Shown here: in pieces, positions 3,475 through 60,616 of the stretch
How the letters are laid out: each line of letters begins with the position of its first letter
How positions within the stretch are numbered: position 1 is the first letter of the stretch
Source: an uncultured Verrucomicrobiales bacterium
GTDB taxonomy: Bacteria > Verrucomicrobiota > Verrucomicrobiia > Verrucomicrobiales > DEV007
Assembly (NCBI GenBank): GCA_943789025.1
Contig: CALSSN010000009.1
Coordinates: 62,001 to 126,000, forward strand
Reading direction: 5' to 3'
Length of the DNA stretch: 64,000 nucleotides
Notes under the pieces: generated by a model
Databases searched by the model: none
Seen by the model: only the letters and a program-made list of their open reading frames with translations
Told to the model about the DNA's origin: nothing
Position numbers and translations under genes: made by a program

Positions 3475-6375
<2,901 letters not shown>

Positions 6376-32689: not shown

Positions 32690-33785
32690 TTATTTCTTTT
32701 TCCGGTCTGTCTTAATGAGCAACGTGTTTAGTGATGAGCCTCCGGGAAGGCTACGGAACCCGCCATATAATGCGCCATCAACATTCGCCCACGTTTCTCC
32801 CGGTGCCTCTGGGATATTCCCGGAATTTCGATTTGGCCATTTCCCCGTTCTTTCATTGTGGGCATCTGCCCATCCGAGAATCTTATCGATGGTAAAAGGC
32901 GGTAGAGCATTTCGATTACGAACCCCCCTTTTTTCAGTCAGTAATTGCGCCAAGGATGAGCCTCCGGGCAGATCCCTTGTTCCTTTGCCAAGTGCATGAT
33001 CGATGCTTGTCCATGTTTCTCCGATAGCTTCCGGAATTGATCCTGATTTTTGATTGGGCCACTTTCCCGTTCTCTCATTATGGGCATCTGCCCACACGAG
33101 GATCTTATCGATAGAAAGGGGCGGAAGGTCACTTTGGTTGCGGACGCCTCTTTTATTTGCCAGTAGTTGCGTCAATGAGGAGCCGCGTTTGAGACTTCGT
33201 TGACCTAAATAGATGGCATTAGCAACATTCGCCCACGTTTCTCCCGGTGCCTCTGGGATATTCCCGGAATTTCGATTTGGCCATTTCCCCGTTCTTTCAT
33301 TGTAGGCACCTGCCCACACAAGAATCTCGTCGATGGAAAGGGGCGGACGAGCCAAGTGATGCTGGTGGCCTCGTTTTTCTATCAGTAGCTGAGCCAATGA
33401 CGCGCCCCGTTGGAGGCTTCGCAGCCCCTTAATCAATGCTTGATTGATATTCCCCCAGTTTTCTCCGATAGCTTCCGGAATTGATCCTGATTTTCGATTT
33501 GGCCACTTTCCCGTTCTCTCATTATGGGCATCTGCCCACACGAGGATCTTATCGATAGAAAGGGGCGGAAGGTCACTTTGGTTGCGGACGCCTCTTTTAT
33601 TTGCCAGTAATCGCGCCAGCGATGAACCTCCGGGCAAGCCTCGTCCGCCGACCTCAAGCGATGCGTCTACATTCCTCCAAGTTTCGCCCGAAACCCCGTG
33701 TATCTCGCCGGAGAATCGTTTAGGCCATTTGCCTGTATTTTCGTGATGTGCATCCGCCCACGCAAGGATCTCCTCTTCGGTTAGC
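32690..33785 (-). repeat. Five tandem coding repeats, 222 bp (74 aa) period with a 444-bp higher-order unit
   Basis: Identical blocks at 444-bp offset, e.g. 32781/33225 (acattcgcccacgtttctcccggtgcctctgg) and 33111/33555 (atagaaaggggcggaaggtcactttggttgcgg). Confidence 0.92.
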
Positions 33786-35868
33786 CGAGGACTCTTCAAT
33801 CCCCCCAACCGATCCCACGCCCGGAGCCTTAACGCCTCATTGAAATCCTCAACATTGAAGACGGTTCGAGCGAACTCTTCGTCGGTGTCCTCCGATTGTC
33901 TTTCCCGGCCCACTTTCCTCCGCTCCTTGCCGACGACCACCTTGATGCGCTCGCTCACATCCCCGTCCACCGTGGCCATTGCCTTTAGGACGGAAACGAG
34001 ATTCTGAAAACCGGTTCCCTCAACGACCTCCTCAAGGTCGAGATCGCCGTCCTCGGTGAGGAGGGGGACTAGCACGTGCGCCATCTTCTCGTCCTGCCCT
34101 CGTGGCTTCCTCAGCGCACGACCCACCGCTTGGACGATGTCCACCTTGCTCTGTCGTGGCTGAGCAAAGAGTACGAGGTCTATTCCGGGGACATCAACCC
34201 CTTCTGTCAGGCAGCGGGCATTTGAAATGAGTGCGGTTTTCGCCTTCTCAAATCCCCGAATCTGGGATTGTCTCGTTCCACTTTTGTCTTCCGATGAGAC
34301 CCGAAACGTCTTAATTGATTTCGAGAGCCCTACATTGTTGAGCGCATTCTGGGCGGTCGCGAATGCTCTCGCGTAGCGGTTGCGTGAGTGGAAGGAAACC
34401 GCGTGGTGGACCTTGTGCTGGCGAATCGTCTTTCTCAATGCCACCGCAGTCGCCAGATCCTCCGCAGTGAGAGGTTCCAACTCTTGCCCGTCATCAAGGT
34501 GGGCATCCACGTAGATGCGCTCCTCGATTTGCTGCCTGTATCTCTCCGCCTCGGCTCCGGTCACCCCCAAGGCTATGACGGTGTAATCAGCGAGAATGCC
34601 GTCCTCGATAGCCTTAGCGAAATCCATGTGGTGGTATCGCTTCCCGTAGATCCGCTCGTCGTTCATCCCCACCACCTCATCACGTTCCCCGTGGTAGAAA
34701 CGTTCCGTGGCGGTCATAAAGACACGGTGCCTGACGTCGATGTTCTTCTGGTAGAGCAGGTGCTGGTATGCCTTGCCTTCGGCTCCTGCCGTCTTGTGCG
34801 CCTCGTCCAACAAGGCCACATCGAACTTGGCGCGGCCTACGGCCTCTGCGAAGACTTTGCCGCTCTGGTAGGTGACGAAAGCCACCTTGAGGTCCTTTTT
34901 GCCACACGGTTGCTGCACCCAGTCCTTGATCTTGGTTGGCTTGGTTGTGACCGTCGCCCTGAGGTCATCCACGTGGGTGTCTCCCTTACCGGTTGAAGCA
35001 TCGGAGCACACCAGCAGGGGGTTGAGGTTCTTTCCGTTCGCCAACGCCTCCCGTGCCCATGTCGAGAAGGTCTGGCCAACCAGATAGAGGCTGGGCACTG
35101 CTACCCACCACCGTCTTGGCCTTGAGCGCATTTACCGCCGTCCAGTAGCCGGTCAGACTCTTTCCCGTGCCACACGGCATGATGAGCTTGCCTCGCCGCT
35201 TGCCGTTTGTGATGAAATGGCGCTTGGCAGCCTTGGTAGCCTCATCTTGATATGGGCGAGGGGTCCAGGGTTTTGGTAGTTCCACCTCCTTGCCAACAGC
35301 GACGGCGCGCACGGCCCTCCAGAACTCGTCAGGAAGTGACTGCCACGTATCGAGCAGCACGTGGCGGTAGTCGAAGCCCTTGGCTTCGGCGAAATCAGGA
35401 GTCCTCTCCCAGACCGAGGCGCAGATGATTCCCCCGGTTTAGATGCGGGGGAGTGACGGCGGCAGATTGGGTGCCGAAGGTTGAGAGTTTTTCGTATGGG
35501 ATACACCCATTTGGATTCGTTTGGTATTTCGCCTGTACGCCCCAGAATTCGCCGCTTTTGGTTCGGACAAGAATGTCGACCCCCTTGTCTTTCTTTGGAA
35601 GGTTCAGGTCCTCTTTGATCTCCCACGGAATCTCCTCATCGAGCCATACCTCCTCCACATCGTGGGCGTAGTCAGGGTGGTGCAGAAAGTAGAATTTGAC
35701 CAGCCGCTCGAAGACATCACCCTTCACCTTGTTCGTGGCCTTCGTGTTGCCCAGCGCCCGCTGGCGCGCCTGGAAGTCCTCCCACGACCGGACGCCCTTG
35801 AGGCGCTTTAGCGAGTCGGCTGAGGCATTCCATTCCATTTGTGACCCTACGGCAACCGCTTCTCGCAT
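32690..35868 (-). CDS. PD-(D/E)xK-like nuclease + SF2 DEAD/DEAH helicase + five C-terminal ~74-aa repeats; candidate restriction/defence-type protein (two one-base frameshifts near 35430 and 35100)
   Basis: N-term KGVDILVRTKSGEFWGVQAKY (35395-35868 frame); helicase GKLIMPCGTGKSLTGYW, LLDEAHKTAG, FMTATERF, IVQAVGRALRKPRGQ; repeats WADAHNERTGKWPNRKSGSIPEAIGENW...SLAQLL. Confidence 0.85.
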
Positions 35869-37206: not shown

Positions 37207-37674
37207 TTCGGCTTAGAAAATATTCCCGATTTTGTAATCTACAAAACGAGAGTTGAGACGATTATCGTAGCGACCACCCCAAAATAGAGAACCCATGAGA
37301 AAAGCAATTATAGTCGCGCTGGATGTCAATGCGCTTGCTGGAAGGAAGAAGGAGCAAGCTTCTGGAAATGCGCTCAATGAACTAAACCAGTATCTAGATG
37401 AGGGTTGGAAGGTACACAATTCCATTCCCATGAGCGGGACTGGACATGGACTCCAATCTGTCACTATCGTCATTTTGGAAAAGGACTGAAGCGATTCGTA
37501 TGAGCTCCCTGACAAATGCTGACCGTGCCGATCGGCCTCTCCGATAAACAAGATGCCGAACAAGGCGTGGCTACCAACAGGCTGCCCACCGCGAGGCGAA
37601 AGCGACATGACAATTCAACCATCAACCGTGAAATCGGAGCGCGCTCCCAGGCAGCCTGTGGCAGCACTCATTCG
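37207..37674 (+). mobile_element. Integron gene cassette 1 (left boundary inferred from GTTCGGC at 37206)
   Basis: Bounded by G|TTCGGC motifs; one small ORF followed by attC 37555-37680. Confidence 0.7.
37295..37489 (+). CDS. Cassette protein 1, short DUF4177-like hypothetical
   Basis: MRKAIIVALDVNALAG...LNELNQYLDEGWKVHNSIPMSGTGHGLQSVTIVILEKD. Confidence 0.6.
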   Translation: MRKAIIVALDVNALAGRKKEQASGNALNELNQYLDEGWKVHNSIPMSGTGHGLQSVTIVILEKD

Positions 37675-37680: not shown

Positions 37681-38262
37681 ATAAAAATTCACGACGATTT
37701 CATCCCGCCTTCATACTGATTTCACATATGAGTGACACCGTTCAACCGATATGAACCAAACAACATCTAATCTAACATATCCCCAGAAAGGGATCACCTC
37801 CATTGCGCATTTTCTCTTTATGGGAACCGGAATTTACGCGCTTGCCTGTGCTCCCGCGATTCTTCTCGCTGAACGGCTCGGTTGGTCGCAGTCTTTTTTT
37901 CACGCTACCCAACTCGTCGCTACGATTCTATGCGTTCCTGCCGCCGCCTGTTTTCTCTTAAATACGCGAGGGTTGCGTTTTAATTGGGCACGCTGTTTTG
38001 CGTTTGTCGCCTGCGTATTGTCTGGCCTCTGGTTGGCGTTTGTTCTTCATGTTTTTCTGACTCTGGATTTCAGCGCGATGGACTGAAGGGAAAAGCTGGG
38101 TCGACGACCTATCCCTGATCAACCCGCGATCAAGAAAACAATAGCCGAACAAGGCGTCGATCCTAACGCCTGACCCGCTGCGAGTTCAACCCGTCATGAC
38201 CATTCAACCATCAACCAAGAAGTCGGAGCACGCCCTCGGTCAGGCGTAGGATGACTTGGACG
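37675..38262 (+). mobile_element. Integron gene cassette 2
   Basis: Between the G|TTCGGC junctions of two attC sites; single ORF in attC orientation. Confidence 0.8.
37751..38086 (+). CDS. Cassette protein 2, hypothetical membrane protein
   Basis: Several hydrophobic segments; single ORF of the cassette. Confidence 0.65.
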   Translation: MNQTTSNLTYPQKGITSIAHFLFMGTGIYALACAPAILLAERLGWSQSFFHATQLVATILCVPAAACFLLNTRGLRFNWARCFAFVACVLSGLWLAFVLHVFLTLDFSAMD

Positions 38263-38730: not shown

Positions 38731-38760
38731 GCCGAACAAGCGGATACAGACCAAAGCACA
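38731..38760 (+). other. Truncated attC (5' end only)
   Basis: GCCGAACAAGCGG matches the attC 5' core of the two upstream sites; no GTTCGGC partner found before the next gene. Confidence 0.5.
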
Positions 38761-57428: not shown

Positions 57429-58664
57429 ATGGCGCGCAGCAACATCTACGTTGGTCTGGAGATTGGCACCTCGAAAATGTGTGTGGTGGTCGGTGAAGTA
57501 AAGCATGATGGCACCATCAAGATCCTGGGAGTAGGGACCGCGCCGTCCCGGGGCGTCCGTAAGGGAGAAATTTGTGACTTCGATACCGTCCAGACCTGCT
57601 TGCATGATGCTCTGGTAAGGGCGGAGGACAGGAGTGATGTGATGATTCGAAATGTTTTCCTGAGTGTGACCGGTTCACACGTTCAAGGAATCAATAATCG
57701 GGGAAGTTATGTGCTCCCTGAAGGTCAGGACGAATTGACAGAAGACGACCTTGAGGAGGTGAAAGAAATCGCCAGAGAAGTGGCCATCCCGCAGCAGAAT
57801 GTTTTTCTTCACAGCATCATCCGTCATTATTACGTGGATGGTCAGGAGGGAGTTGTCAATCCTGTCGGCATGATGGGAAGCAAATTGGAAGCGGATTACC
57901 ATATCATTCATGGTGTGAGGAGCAGGATTCAAAATTCTATTCGTTCGGTTCGAGAGATTCCGCTTGAGGTAGAGGATGTCGTTTTCGCTCCGATTGCATC
58001 GGCTCAGGTGGTTTTAAGCCGGGAGGTGAAGAATTCGGGGGCTCTGGTGATTGATATTGGAGGCGGGACATCGGATTACGTGGCTTATGCTGACGGGGTG
58101 GTGAGTGCCAGTGGCTGCGTCCCGATCGGAGGAGATCACATCACCAATGATCTTTCTGTGGTTTTGAACCTGCCACTTCGGGAAGCCGAGAAGCTGAAGA
58201 TGAGAGAAGGGAGCGCGGAGCTTTTTGAGGGCCCGGAGGATATGCGAATGATACGGGTGGAAGGGGATCACACATTTACGGGGATGGATGTGGAGAGGCC
58301 TGTCGTCAATGAGGTGATTCATATGCGTGTTCGAGAGGTGATGGATCATGTCCATGCCAGAGTGGCGGCTACCGGTGCGCTCGACCGCATCGCTGGTGGT
58401 GTCTACCTCACCGGCGGCTCCAGCCTTCTTCGCGGCATTGACGCCGTCGCTGAGGATGTCTTCGCGATGCCGGTTCACCGGACCAATTCAGTGCCTGTCA
58501 GCGGCTTGAATGCAACCTTTGAGAACCCACAATACGCAACCGCGATAGGATTGATTCGTTATGCTCAGATCCTCGATGAGGAAGCTCCGATTGCTTCTCC
58601 AATCGCACGAATCAAGAATAGATTAAGCGGGATGTTTGGAAGCGTTCGCTTTGTTTTGGGGTAA
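57429..58664 (+). CDS. ftsA: Cell division protein FtsA
   Basis: IYVGLEIGTSKMCVVVGEV, NRGSYVLPEG, GALVIDIGGGTSDYVAY, IAGGVYLTGGSSLLRGI. Confidence 0.93.
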   Translation: MARSNIYVGLEIGTSKMCVVVGEVKHDGTIKILGVGTAPSRGVRKGEICDFDTVQTCLHDALVRAEDRSDVMIRNVFLSVTGSHVQGINNRGSYVLPEGQDELTEDDLEEVKEIAREVAIPQQNVFLHSIIRHYYVDGQEGVVNPVGMMGSKLEADYHIIHGVRSRIQNSIRSVREIPLEVEDVVFAPIASAQVVLSREVKNSGALVIDIGGGTSDYVAYADGVVSASGCVPIGGDHITNDLSVVLNLPLREAEKLKMREGSAELFEGPEDMRMIRVEGDHTFTGMDVERPVVNEVIHMRVREVMDHVHARVAATGALDRIAGGVYLTGGSSLLRGIDAVAEDVFAMPVHRTNSVPVSGLNATFENPQYATAIGLIRYAQILDEEAPIASPIARIKNRLSGMFGSVRFVLG

Positions 58665-58720
58665 TAATGGCCCTACCCGCATTGATGCACTGATTATTTT
58701 TGACCCAACCGTAATAGCCA

Positions 58721-60616
58721 TGATTGAATACAATCCCGAGAATGAAACAAAAGAGAGGCTTTCTGGGTCTTCTGGAATTTGCGTGGTTGGAATCGGGGGT
58801 GCGGGAGCAAACGTCCTCGATCGTATTGCTCTCGAGAATTTGGTAGATACAGAGCTGATAAGCATGAACACAGACGTTCGTGCTCTTTCCAATGCCGTAT
58901 CGAGCAAAAAGCTGCAGTTGGGTGCCGATATAACACGCGGCCTGGGAGCAGGTGGTGACCCGGAGCTTGGCAGCGAAGCCGCGAAAAGCGAAGAGATTGC
59001 TATCAGGGAGGCGCTTACAGGCAAAAATATTGTTTTTATCTGCGTCGGACTTGGAGGAGGAACCGGTTCTGGAGCGGGGCCTTATGTGGTGAATATTGCC
59101 AAGGATCTCGGTGCTTTTGTTGTGGTATTAGCAACCATGCCTTTTTCTTTTGAGGGGCGGCGTCGTATCGAACAAGCAAAAAGTGCCCTGGAGGAGATGG
59201 AGGAATCGAGTGACGCCTTGATTGTCTTCGAAAATGATAAAATGGGCCAATTGGCTCTTAATAAGTCTGGGGTTCAGGAGGCCTTTGCCACGGCAGATAA
59301 GATTATCGGTCAGAGTATCCGCGCCGTGACGACCTTGGTTGCCCAACCGGGGCTGATTCGTATCGGGATGGATGACCTGATGTCCGTGCTGCGGAATAAT
59401 GAGTCCCGCTGCTTGTTTGGCTATGGAACAGCCAAAGGCAAAAAACCGCTCGCAGGAAGCGCTCAAGGAGGCATTGAAAAGTCCTCTTCTTGATCGCGGG
59501 AAAATGCTGGAAGGAGCAAGCAGTGTGCTTGTCCACATCACAGGGGGCGACTCGATGACCTTGTATGAAGTCGAATTGCTCATGAATGCCTTGAAAAAGC
59601 ATGTCAATGAGGGAGCGCATCTTCTGTTTGGTCTGGCGACGGATGAAAATTTTGGCGAGAGCCTTGCAGTGACATTGATCACATCGATTTCAAATATCGA
59701 AATTCCGTCAGTGGAAGATGAACGTCCTGTTTTGAGTGATTCAGGCGCTTGTGAAGAATCACTGGCAGAAAATGCCGATGAAAGATCGGAAAAAGATCGA
59801 GAGAGAGAGCCAGAATCGGAAGGCACAGAGGAGGTGGTTTCACAGGGTAGACAAGAGGCCCGCAACGAGCCTCAAGCGGAAATGGATTTGCTCAGCCTCG
59901 ATCCGGGACAGTCTGAGAGGGATCAGAAACTTGAGATGCAGTCAGACTCCGGAGAAGGATCTCTTGAGAAGCCCGCTTCTGCAAAAAAAAGTAAGCCTTC
60001 CGAGGTAACCCCTGGATCAGAAACAAAGGCTGGAAATGACGAGAGTTCTGCCGCAGAGATTGAGGGAAAGCCGTCCAAAAGAAAAGTTAAGAAAGAGCCT
60101 GAAACCGACCGGCAGGGAGGCATGCGCCTGAATTTGCTTCCAAGGGTCTTCGGAGGAGGCAAACATAAGCAGAAAGAGCAGCAAGACACTCAGGGCGCAT
60201 CAAAAGCAAAAAAGGACGCTTCAGAATCAGATCTTGGAATTATTGAGGCAGAAGAGAAGGTCGATGCTGCCGCCAAAAATACAGGCAAGAAGAAAAAAGC
60301 GGAAGAGGCACCCGAAGTTTCTACTTTTGTTGATCGCTCAAGGATTACGAGCAAGACAGACGCATCAGCAACAGAGGGGCCCGAAGCGGCGAGAGGAAGC
60401 AGTAAAAGTTCTGCTGAAAAAGTAAACGAACATCAGGCCGGAACCTCAGAGAGGATGACGGACGAGTCGAGATTTACGGAGGAAGAGAATGAGATTACGG
60501 ATCAGGGAGCCCTTCCCTTGGACGGCGGAAAAACAGGAAGATTTCTCAAGGGCGAACCGACCATTGTCGATGGGGAGGACTTGGATGTTCCGACTTTTAT
60601 GAGGAAAAAAGAATAA
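58721..60616 (+). CDS. ftsZ: Cell division protein FtsZ with ~290-aa charged C-terminal linker; one-base insertion in A6 run near 59443
   Basis: GGAGANVLDRI, GLGGGTGSGAGPYV; shifted frame continues KNRSQEALKEALKSPLLDRGKMLEGASSVLVHITGG...; ends with LDVPTFMRKKE, an FtsZ-type C-terminal peptide. Confidence 0.92.

What the first reader, a model, noticed from the sequence alone, without database searches (positions are those of the whole stretch)
32690..35868. Nuclease-helicase-repeat protein: candidate uncharacterised defence or anti-MGE factor
After repairing two one-base insertions (near 35430 in a G run, and 35100), a single ~1,050-aa protein appears. It has a PD-(D/E)xK/Mrr-like N-terminus (GVDILV...VQAKY), an SF2 helicase, and an array of ~74-aa repeats in place of the methylase often seen in large restriction helicases. 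It lies next to a tRNA and an integron array, a typical accessory setting. No cognate methyltransferase is visible.
Basis: partly seen in the sequence, partly recalled or inferred. Interest (0 to 1): 0.8.

Follow-up and report, generated by a model that had tools for sequence, protein, structure and literature searches.

The report
Nuclease-motor protein with swappable repeats
This gene encodes the DNA-cutting and DNA-walking half of a known type of bacterial restriction enzyme, but the methylating and recognition half is replaced by a string of repeats that relatives exchange and reshuffle quickly, so it may be a self-contained, easily re-aimed defence against foreign DNA.

Summary
On the minus strand, 35868-32690 encodes an Mrr-like PD-(D/E)xK nuclease, an SF2 motor and five 74-aa repeats. 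One protein is spread over three frames. The breaks are probably assembly errors, because ftsZ and gcvP are also split in this window. An intact 1,035-aa homologue with the same order exists (L118, in a phage-like contig).

Nuclease and motor are those of Type ISP restriction enzymes (LlaBIII/LlaGI). The coupler, methyltransferase and recognition domain are absent, and four DNA-methylase families give no match in the 81%-complete genome. The repeat has no Pfam family and no confident structural match.

Relatives carry INT_rpt or HA arrays after the same motors, the array type changing just after a shared linker. The two motors with the window's repeat type belong to different motor lineages. 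In one genus, orthologues keep 91-95% identical enzymes while their arrays are partly or wholly replaced.

Best reading: a methylase-free translocating restriction nuclease aimed by a modular DNA-binding array. Defence and DNA binding are inferred, not shown. It is a new variant of a known kind.

The parts
35440..35868 (-). Mrr-family PD-(D/E)xK nuclease domain (first 143 residues)
   Evidence: Mrr_cat_2 E 3e-10; phmmer to LlaBIII 4xqk E 7.5e-9; AF2 model of an intact homologue's domain hits 4xqk, TM 0.72
35707..35709 (-). invariant Glu (E54) of the nuclease, motif KGDVFERL
   Evidence: invariant in 26 homologues
35575..35577 (-). invariant Asp (D98) of the nuclease, motif GVDI
   Evidence: invariant in 26 homologues
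35527..35535 (-). invariant Q112-x-K114 of the nuclease, motif VQAKY
   Evidence: invariant in 26 homologues
35432..35476 (-). first frame break (-3 to -1), probably a sequence error
   Evidence: tblastn frames; ftsZ and gcvP also split in the window
35136..35432 (-). start of the SF2 motor with Walker A (GTGKS), in frame -1
   Evidence: ResIII E 2.5e-6; tblastn
35116..35136 (-). second frame break (-1 to -2), probably a sequence error
   Evidence: tblastn frames
33818..35116 (-). rest of the SF2 motor (DEAH, TAT, QAVGRALR motifs)
   Evidence: Helicase_C E 4.5e-9; phmmer to LlaGI 1.1e-30 and LlaBIII 1.4e-30
33785..33817 (-). linker WDRLGGLKSPR: conserved WDRL, then switch to the array
   Evidence: same WDRL/WSRL linker precedes INT_rpt arrays in L002-L004
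33563..33784 (-). array repeat 1 (74 aa)
33341..33562 (-). array repeat 2 (74 aa)
33119..33340 (-). array repeat 3 (74 aa)
32897..33118 (-). array repeat 4 (74 aa)
32690..32896 (-). array repeat 5 (68 aa, C-terminal) and stop codon

Best explanation
A single-chain, ATP-driven restriction nuclease built on the Type ISP nuclease-motor, aimed by a C-terminal array of small basic three-helix repeats instead of a methyltransferase and recognition domain. The array is proposed to bind a DNA sequence set by the order of its repeats, the motor then to translocate away, and the Mrr-like nuclease to cut on collision or stalling, as in LlaBIII. With no methylase, self would be spared because the long target is absent from the host, and the enzyme would be re-aimed by exchanging repeats or whole arrays. 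Shown here: domain identity, intact homologue, absence of the methylase half, array swapping between motor lineages, array turnover within a genus (in INT_rpt relatives). Inferred: DNA binding and specificity of the array, translocation, cleavage, the self/non-self rule, and defence.
For: Nuclease and motor match LlaBIII/LlaGI by sequence and the nuclease by fold; catalytic residues are invariant. PADLOC's ISP-like model matches L118 only over 5-647 of 1646 positions. No ISP_coupler, Type_ISP_C or N6_Mtase match, although a control ISP enzyme has all three. No PF02384, PF01555, PF07669 or PF00145 match in the genome. Motors with the window's repeat are not one clade (AU p 9e-75), whereas methylase-bearing motors form one clade, 100/100. 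The array type changes right after a conserved linker. Congeneric G125 and G817: enzyme DNA 91% identical, repeats 1, 2, 5, 6, 7 at 93-99%, repeats 3 and 4 at 66-72%; G898: enzyme 91% identical, nine repeats instead of seven, nearly all at the level of unrelated repeats. Within arrays, positions picked from other arrays (22-24, 29, 37, 41, 45, 47 among them) vary most in the window and in L083 too (p 5e-4 and 2e-4), while the rest is under purifying selection (dN/dS 0.11-0.27). Arrays are basic, pI 9.3-10.6.
Against: No DNA binding or cleavage has been shown for any member. The repeat has no significant match to a solved structure. Array turnover was seen in INT_rpt siblings, not in arrays of the window's own repeat. 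The window copy is frame-broken as assembled. Many homologues lack defence neighbours. Surface positions of any repeat protein vary more than its core, so hypervariability alone does not prove specificity. The genome is 81% complete, so a methylase may be missed.
Confidence: 0.52

Rival explanations
1. A methylase-free nuclease-helicase that senses DNA state (ends, gaps, forks), as Hachiman does, with the array serving as a general DNA-holding tether. It would clear invader, or cell, DNA when replication intermediates appear.
For: Hachiman pairs a PD-(D/E)xK nuclease with an SF2 helicase, needs no methylase and responds to free ssDNA ends (PMC12278908). Low pTM (0.55) beside high pLDDT (90) suggests loosely linked beads rather than one rigid solenoid.
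Against: The motor is of the LlaGI/LlaBIII translocase family by sequence, not known to be end-activated. A tether without sequence preference would not be expected to have repeats replaced in blocks within a genus.
Confidence: 0.2
2. A modification-dependent (Type IV-like) restriction enzyme: the array recognises modified bases of phage DNA, so no methylase is needed.
For: No methylase found in the genome. The nuclease model's next structural relatives are MspJI and AspBHI, which cut modified DNA.
Against: The similarity lies in the nuclease core, which is not what reads the modification. No known reader domain is found by Pfam. A modification reader would not be expected to be five to twelve variable repeats.
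Confidence: 0.1
3. A gene serving mobile elements themselves: competition between phages or plasmids, or an aid to transfer, as suggested (from memory) for helicases at the ends of Streptomyces linear replicons.
For: The intact homologue L118 lies between a prohead protease and an integrase. INT_rpt versions occur in contigs called viral. An HA version is on a Rhodococcus plasmid, and a nuclease-less HA helicase lies near the end of linear SLP2.
Against: Many copies are chromosomal singletons. The nuclease is kept in most, which a transfer helicase would not need. Phage-borne defence against rivals would be the same mechanism in another owner.
Confidence: 0.12
4. A decaying remnant: a Type ISP gene that lost its methylase half and is now frameshifted.
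For: Two frame breaks in the assembled sequence; the methylase is missing.
Against: L118 has the same architecture intact. Array-bearing motors are separated from methylase-bearing ones by a 100/100 branch, so the array form is not a recent truncation. Repeats are under purifying selection. ftsZ and gcvP show the same kind of break in this window.
Confidence: 0.06

Closest known systems
Type ISP restriction-modification enzymes (LlaGI, LlaBIII)
   Same: Mrr-family nuclease and SF2 motor in the same order in one chain; E, D and QxK conserved; fold match to 4xqk
   Different: No coupler (PF22240), no N6 methylase, no Type_ISP_C recognition domain; a repeat array instead
Mrr-motor proteins with HA (PF03457) arrays, e.g. 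Rhodococcus WP_064689746.1
   Same: Same nuclease and motor, C-terminal array of 5-9 short repeats, no methylase
   Different: Repeat type differs; no sequence relation by profile comparison
Mrr-motor proteins with INT_rpt (PF14882) arrays (L002-L004)
   Same: Closest motors to the window's, 100/100 branch; same linker before the array
   Different: Repeat type differs
Hachiman (HamAB)
   Same: PD-(D/E)xK nuclease plus SF2 helicase, no methylase (PMC12278908)
   Different: Two proteins, a different nuclease family (DUF1837), no repeat array, damage-sensing
Mrr-type Type IV restriction enzymes
   Same: Mrr-family nuclease, no methylase
   Different: No LlaGI-type motor and array (general knowledge, not tested)

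Membership tests
Type ISP restriction-modification enzyme | N-terminal Mrr-family nuclease | tested here: met
   Mrr_cat_2; 4xqk match by sequence and fold
Type ISP restriction-modification enzyme | SF2 helicase-like ATPase of LlaGI/LlaBIII type | tested here: met
   profile vs 4xqk 1.7e-106; window vs 5ffj 1.1e-30
Type ISP restriction-modification enzyme | Coupler domain (PF22240) | tested here: not met
   absent in window and L118; found in control L115
Type ISP restriction-modification enzyme | N6-adenine methyltransferase in the same chain | tested here: not met
   no PF02384 in protein or genome; control L115 has it
Type ISP restriction-modification enzyme | C-terminal recognition domain (PF18135) | tested here: not met
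Type ISP restriction-modification enzyme | Translocation and collision-dependent cleavage | not testable with these tools
   needs protein
Array-bearing Mrr-motor proteins (HA, INT_rpt or this repeat) | Mrr nuclease plus ISP-type motor plus C-terminal tandem repeats, no methylase | tested here: met
HA helicases (PF03457) | HA domains in the array | tested here: not met
   no HA match; hhalign probability 0.3%
INT_rpt proteins (PF14882) | INT_rpt units in the array | tested here: not met
   no match; hhalign probability 0.1%
Hachiman | HamA DUF1837 nuclease with separate HamB helicase | tested here: not met
   nuclease is Mrr_cat_2 and N-terminal to the motor; no Hachiman model among PADLOC hits
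Type IV (modification-dependent) restriction | Cuts only modified DNA | not testable with these tools
   needs protein; no reader domain in Pfam

The most novel reading that the evidence does not exclude
A class of methylase-free restriction enzymes in which tandem repeats spell out a long target sequence, repeat by repeat, and whose target changes in evolution by swapping repeats: a protein-coded counterpart to programmable nucleases, joined to a DNA-translocating motor, with at least three unrelated repeat types recruited to the same engine.
Probability: 0.35. Interest if true: 0.9.

Novelty: new variant of a known kind. Interest (0 to 1): 0.7.

Why it matters
Restriction enzymes are normally tied to a methylase that protects the host. 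An enzyme keeping the engine of Type ISP but carrying an exchangeable array instead would need another way to spare self. If each repeat reads DNA, the arrays would be a new natural code for DNA recognition, testable directly by comparing congeneric proteins that differ in only two repeats. The repeat type found here has no Pfam family and occurs in at least two phyla and on several kinds of protein.

Tried and rejected
Repeats in plasmids by tblastn: no match. Repeats in viral contigs by pattern: none confirmed, though the motor search later found L118. Profile comparison of the three repeat types: no detectable relation. Solved structures by sequence for the repeat: only 5tgf at E 1.7, not significant. 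Fold search of the repeat pair in PDB and BFVD: nothing below 1e-3; best PDB hits are sigma factors at E 0.04; one HA-annotated phage protein and two Pithovirus helicases appear at E 1.4-4.7, suggestive only. An HTH-like tail on the G514 arrays was suspected by eye but Pfam found nothing. Defence-island enrichment was judged by eye on a few loci with mixed result; no statistic was possible. A phase-variation reading of the frame breaks was dropped because ftsZ and gcvP are broken too. Literature searches found no paper on this architecture, but the library holds only openly licensed papers.

Full report
What is there. The minus strand from 35868 to 32690 encodes one protein in three frames. 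Homologues that are single proteins align across it in consecutive frames -3, -1 and -2 (35784-35476, 35432-35136, 35116-33797; E = 9e-131 for L002), so the frame changes twice. Pfam finds Mrr_cat_2, ResIII and Helicase_C in that order. The last 368 residues are five repeats of 74 aa (the last 68), 59-74% identical to the first row in alignment A1.

Are the breaks real? Probably not. In the same 64 kb, ftsZ is split into a Tubulin piece and an FtsZ_C piece in overlapping frames, and gcvP is also in two pieces. A growing cell is not expected to have a broken ftsZ, so assembly or sequencing error is the simplest cause. L118, a 1,035-aa open frame with nuclease, motor and five repeats of the same type, shows that the architecture exists intact. 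From motor to stop it aligns to the window over 817 residues at 36.7% identity. Reads were not available to prove the point.

Nuclease. The N-terminal piece matches LlaBIII (4xqk) at E = 7.5e-9. Across 26 homologues including Type ISP enzymes, G50, F53, E54, D94, G96, D98, Q112 and K114 (window numbering) are invariant. AlphaFold2 on the domain of L118, with the window among the 20 rows, gives pLDDT 90 and pTM 0.84. Foldseek returns LlaBIII first (E = 8e-10, TM 0.72), then MspJI; EndoMS and AspBHI follow at weaker E-values.

Motor. A profile of five homologues matches LlaBIII over 31-654 at E = 1.7e-106 and LlaGI at 1.9e-85. The window's own motor matches both at about 1e-30.

What is missing. 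A control Type ISP enzyme (L115) shows ISP_coupler, N6_Mtase and Type_ISP_C. The window and L118 show none. PADLOC's closest model is matched only over its first 40% (positions 5-647 of 1646 in L118). The assembled genome (2.57 Mb, 81% complete) has no match to PF02384, PF01555, PF07669 or PF00145, each of which rings in 10-13 of 14 control genomes. So no candidate cognate methylase is seen, with the caveat of completeness.

The array. The repeat has no Pfam family. It was not found in 288 other genomes of the window's phylum but occurs in Planctomycetota, where it sits on an Mrr-motor (L037/L083, 12 repeats), on other SF2 helicases without Mrr (L076-L078) and in stand-alone arrays (L031-L036). 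A two-repeat model has three helices per repeat with pLDDT 90 but pTM 0.55, so the repeats look like linked beads. No solved structure matches significantly. Arrays are basic, pI 9.3-10.6.

Other arrays on the same engine. L002-L004 carry INT_rpt-type units (where Pfam names them in L002 and L004; L003 has the same units by eye); a Rhodococcus plasmid protein and Planctomycetota L098 and L099 carry 5-9 HA domains. More INT_rpt-like and HA-like cases appear in the window's class and in contigs called viral. The three repeat types are not relatable by profile comparison. In L002-L004 and the window the array type changes just after the linker W-D/S-R-L; in L118 versus Rhodococcus it changes just after another conserved linker.

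Tree. Using the motor alone, the window groups with the INT_rpt motors (100/100) and the Planctomycetota motor bearing the window's repeat groups with HA motors (98/94). Holding the two together as one clade is rejected (AU p = 9e-75). All 13 methylase-bearing motors form one side of a 100/100 branch. The window's branch is long, so its exact place is uncertain, but its separation from L037 is strong. The same repeat type was thus joined to two motor lineages.

Turnover within a genus. G125, G817 and G898 are three species of one genus with the INT_rpt form. G125 and G817 have 95.5% identical enzymes (91.2% DNA). Repeats 1, 2, 5, 6 and 7 are 93-99% identical in DNA, but repeats 3 and 4 are 66% and 72%. 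Different repeats within one array average 57% identity in protein. G898 has a 91% identical enzyme but nine repeats, with best matches of 58-73% to any repeat of the other two. The enzyme part and the 3' flank of G898 still align to the G125 locus while most of the array between them does not, so it is the same locus with a replaced array. This looks like replacement of a targeting module. It was seen in the sibling INT_rpt form, not yet in arrays of the window's repeat.

Variation within arrays of the window's repeat. Positions chosen as most variable in other arrays (4, 22-24, 29, 37, 41, 45, 47, 54, 61, 63) are also the most variable in the window and in L083 (Mann-Whitney p = 5e-4 and 2e-4). 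Outside the hypervariable positions dN/dS between repeats is 0.11-0.27; at positions 37, 38, 41, 44, 45 and 47 it is about 1 where it can be estimated (those positions were picked from the same data, so that figure is descriptive). This fits a scaffold with changing contact residues but would also fit a variable surface.

Setting. The distribution is sporadic. By the classification used here, 4 of 289 genomes in a phylum sample bear the array form (G000, G012, G125, G162), and 4 of 392 in Planctomycetota (G289, G602, G639, G684). L118 lies between a prohead protease and an integrase. L083 has a Ppl-like ATPase next to it, L086 a BglII-like nuclease and an HNH-WYL protein, L088 a NACHT protein and an RT-associated PD-DExK match. 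Others stand among ordinary genes. This supports an accessory gene, with only moderate support for defence.

How it most likely works. By analogy with LlaBIII, where the nuclease is activated when translocating enzymes collide (PMC4666363), the array would bind a target, the motor would move and the nuclease would cut at a collision or roadblock. Host DNA would be spared because a long target is absent. The main alternative is sensing of DNA ends or damage, as in Hachiman (PMC12278908), with the array as a tether. Block replacement of repeats favours sequence reading over tethering, but only a binding experiment can decide.

Verdict. A real, functional-looking architecture; a new variant of a known kind. 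The novel reading, a natural repeat-coded and methylase-free restriction enzyme, is not excluded and is directly testable.

Noticed in passing
window 37555-37654, 38144-38243, 38731-38743: Three attC-like sites (GCCGAACAAGGCG core, about 588 bp apart) with small ORFs between them, consistent with integron cassettes; no integrase was identified.
   Followed up: partly
window 58636-60616 and 3475-6375: ftsZ and gcvP are each split by frame changes, so frame-based calls in this assembly should be distrusted.
   Followed up: yes
L076 8379-11828, L077 8512-11433, L078 7365-10079: One Planctomycetota genome has three paralogous SF2 helicases without the Mrr nuclease, each ending in four or five of the same repeats.
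   Followed up: partly
L080 8350-9768, L081 7507-8637, L082 7428-8792: Arrays of the same repeat with a shared C-terminal tail of unknown type in one genome (three loci); the tail looked HTH-like by eye but Pfam finds nothing.
   Followed up: partly
L083 9269-9408: The Planctomycetota homologue also has a frame break, at the start of its array; cause unknown (low-coverage assembly).
   Followed up: no
L086 11669-12175 and 12216-13175: A BglII-like nuclease and an HNH-WYL protein lie next to the INT_rpt form, with an integrase-like gene further on.
   Followed up: partly
L114 1641-4286: A nuclease-less HA helicase near the end of the linear plasmid SLP2 shares the motor type; helicases annotated with HA domains are frequent on Streptomyces plasmids.
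   Followed up: no
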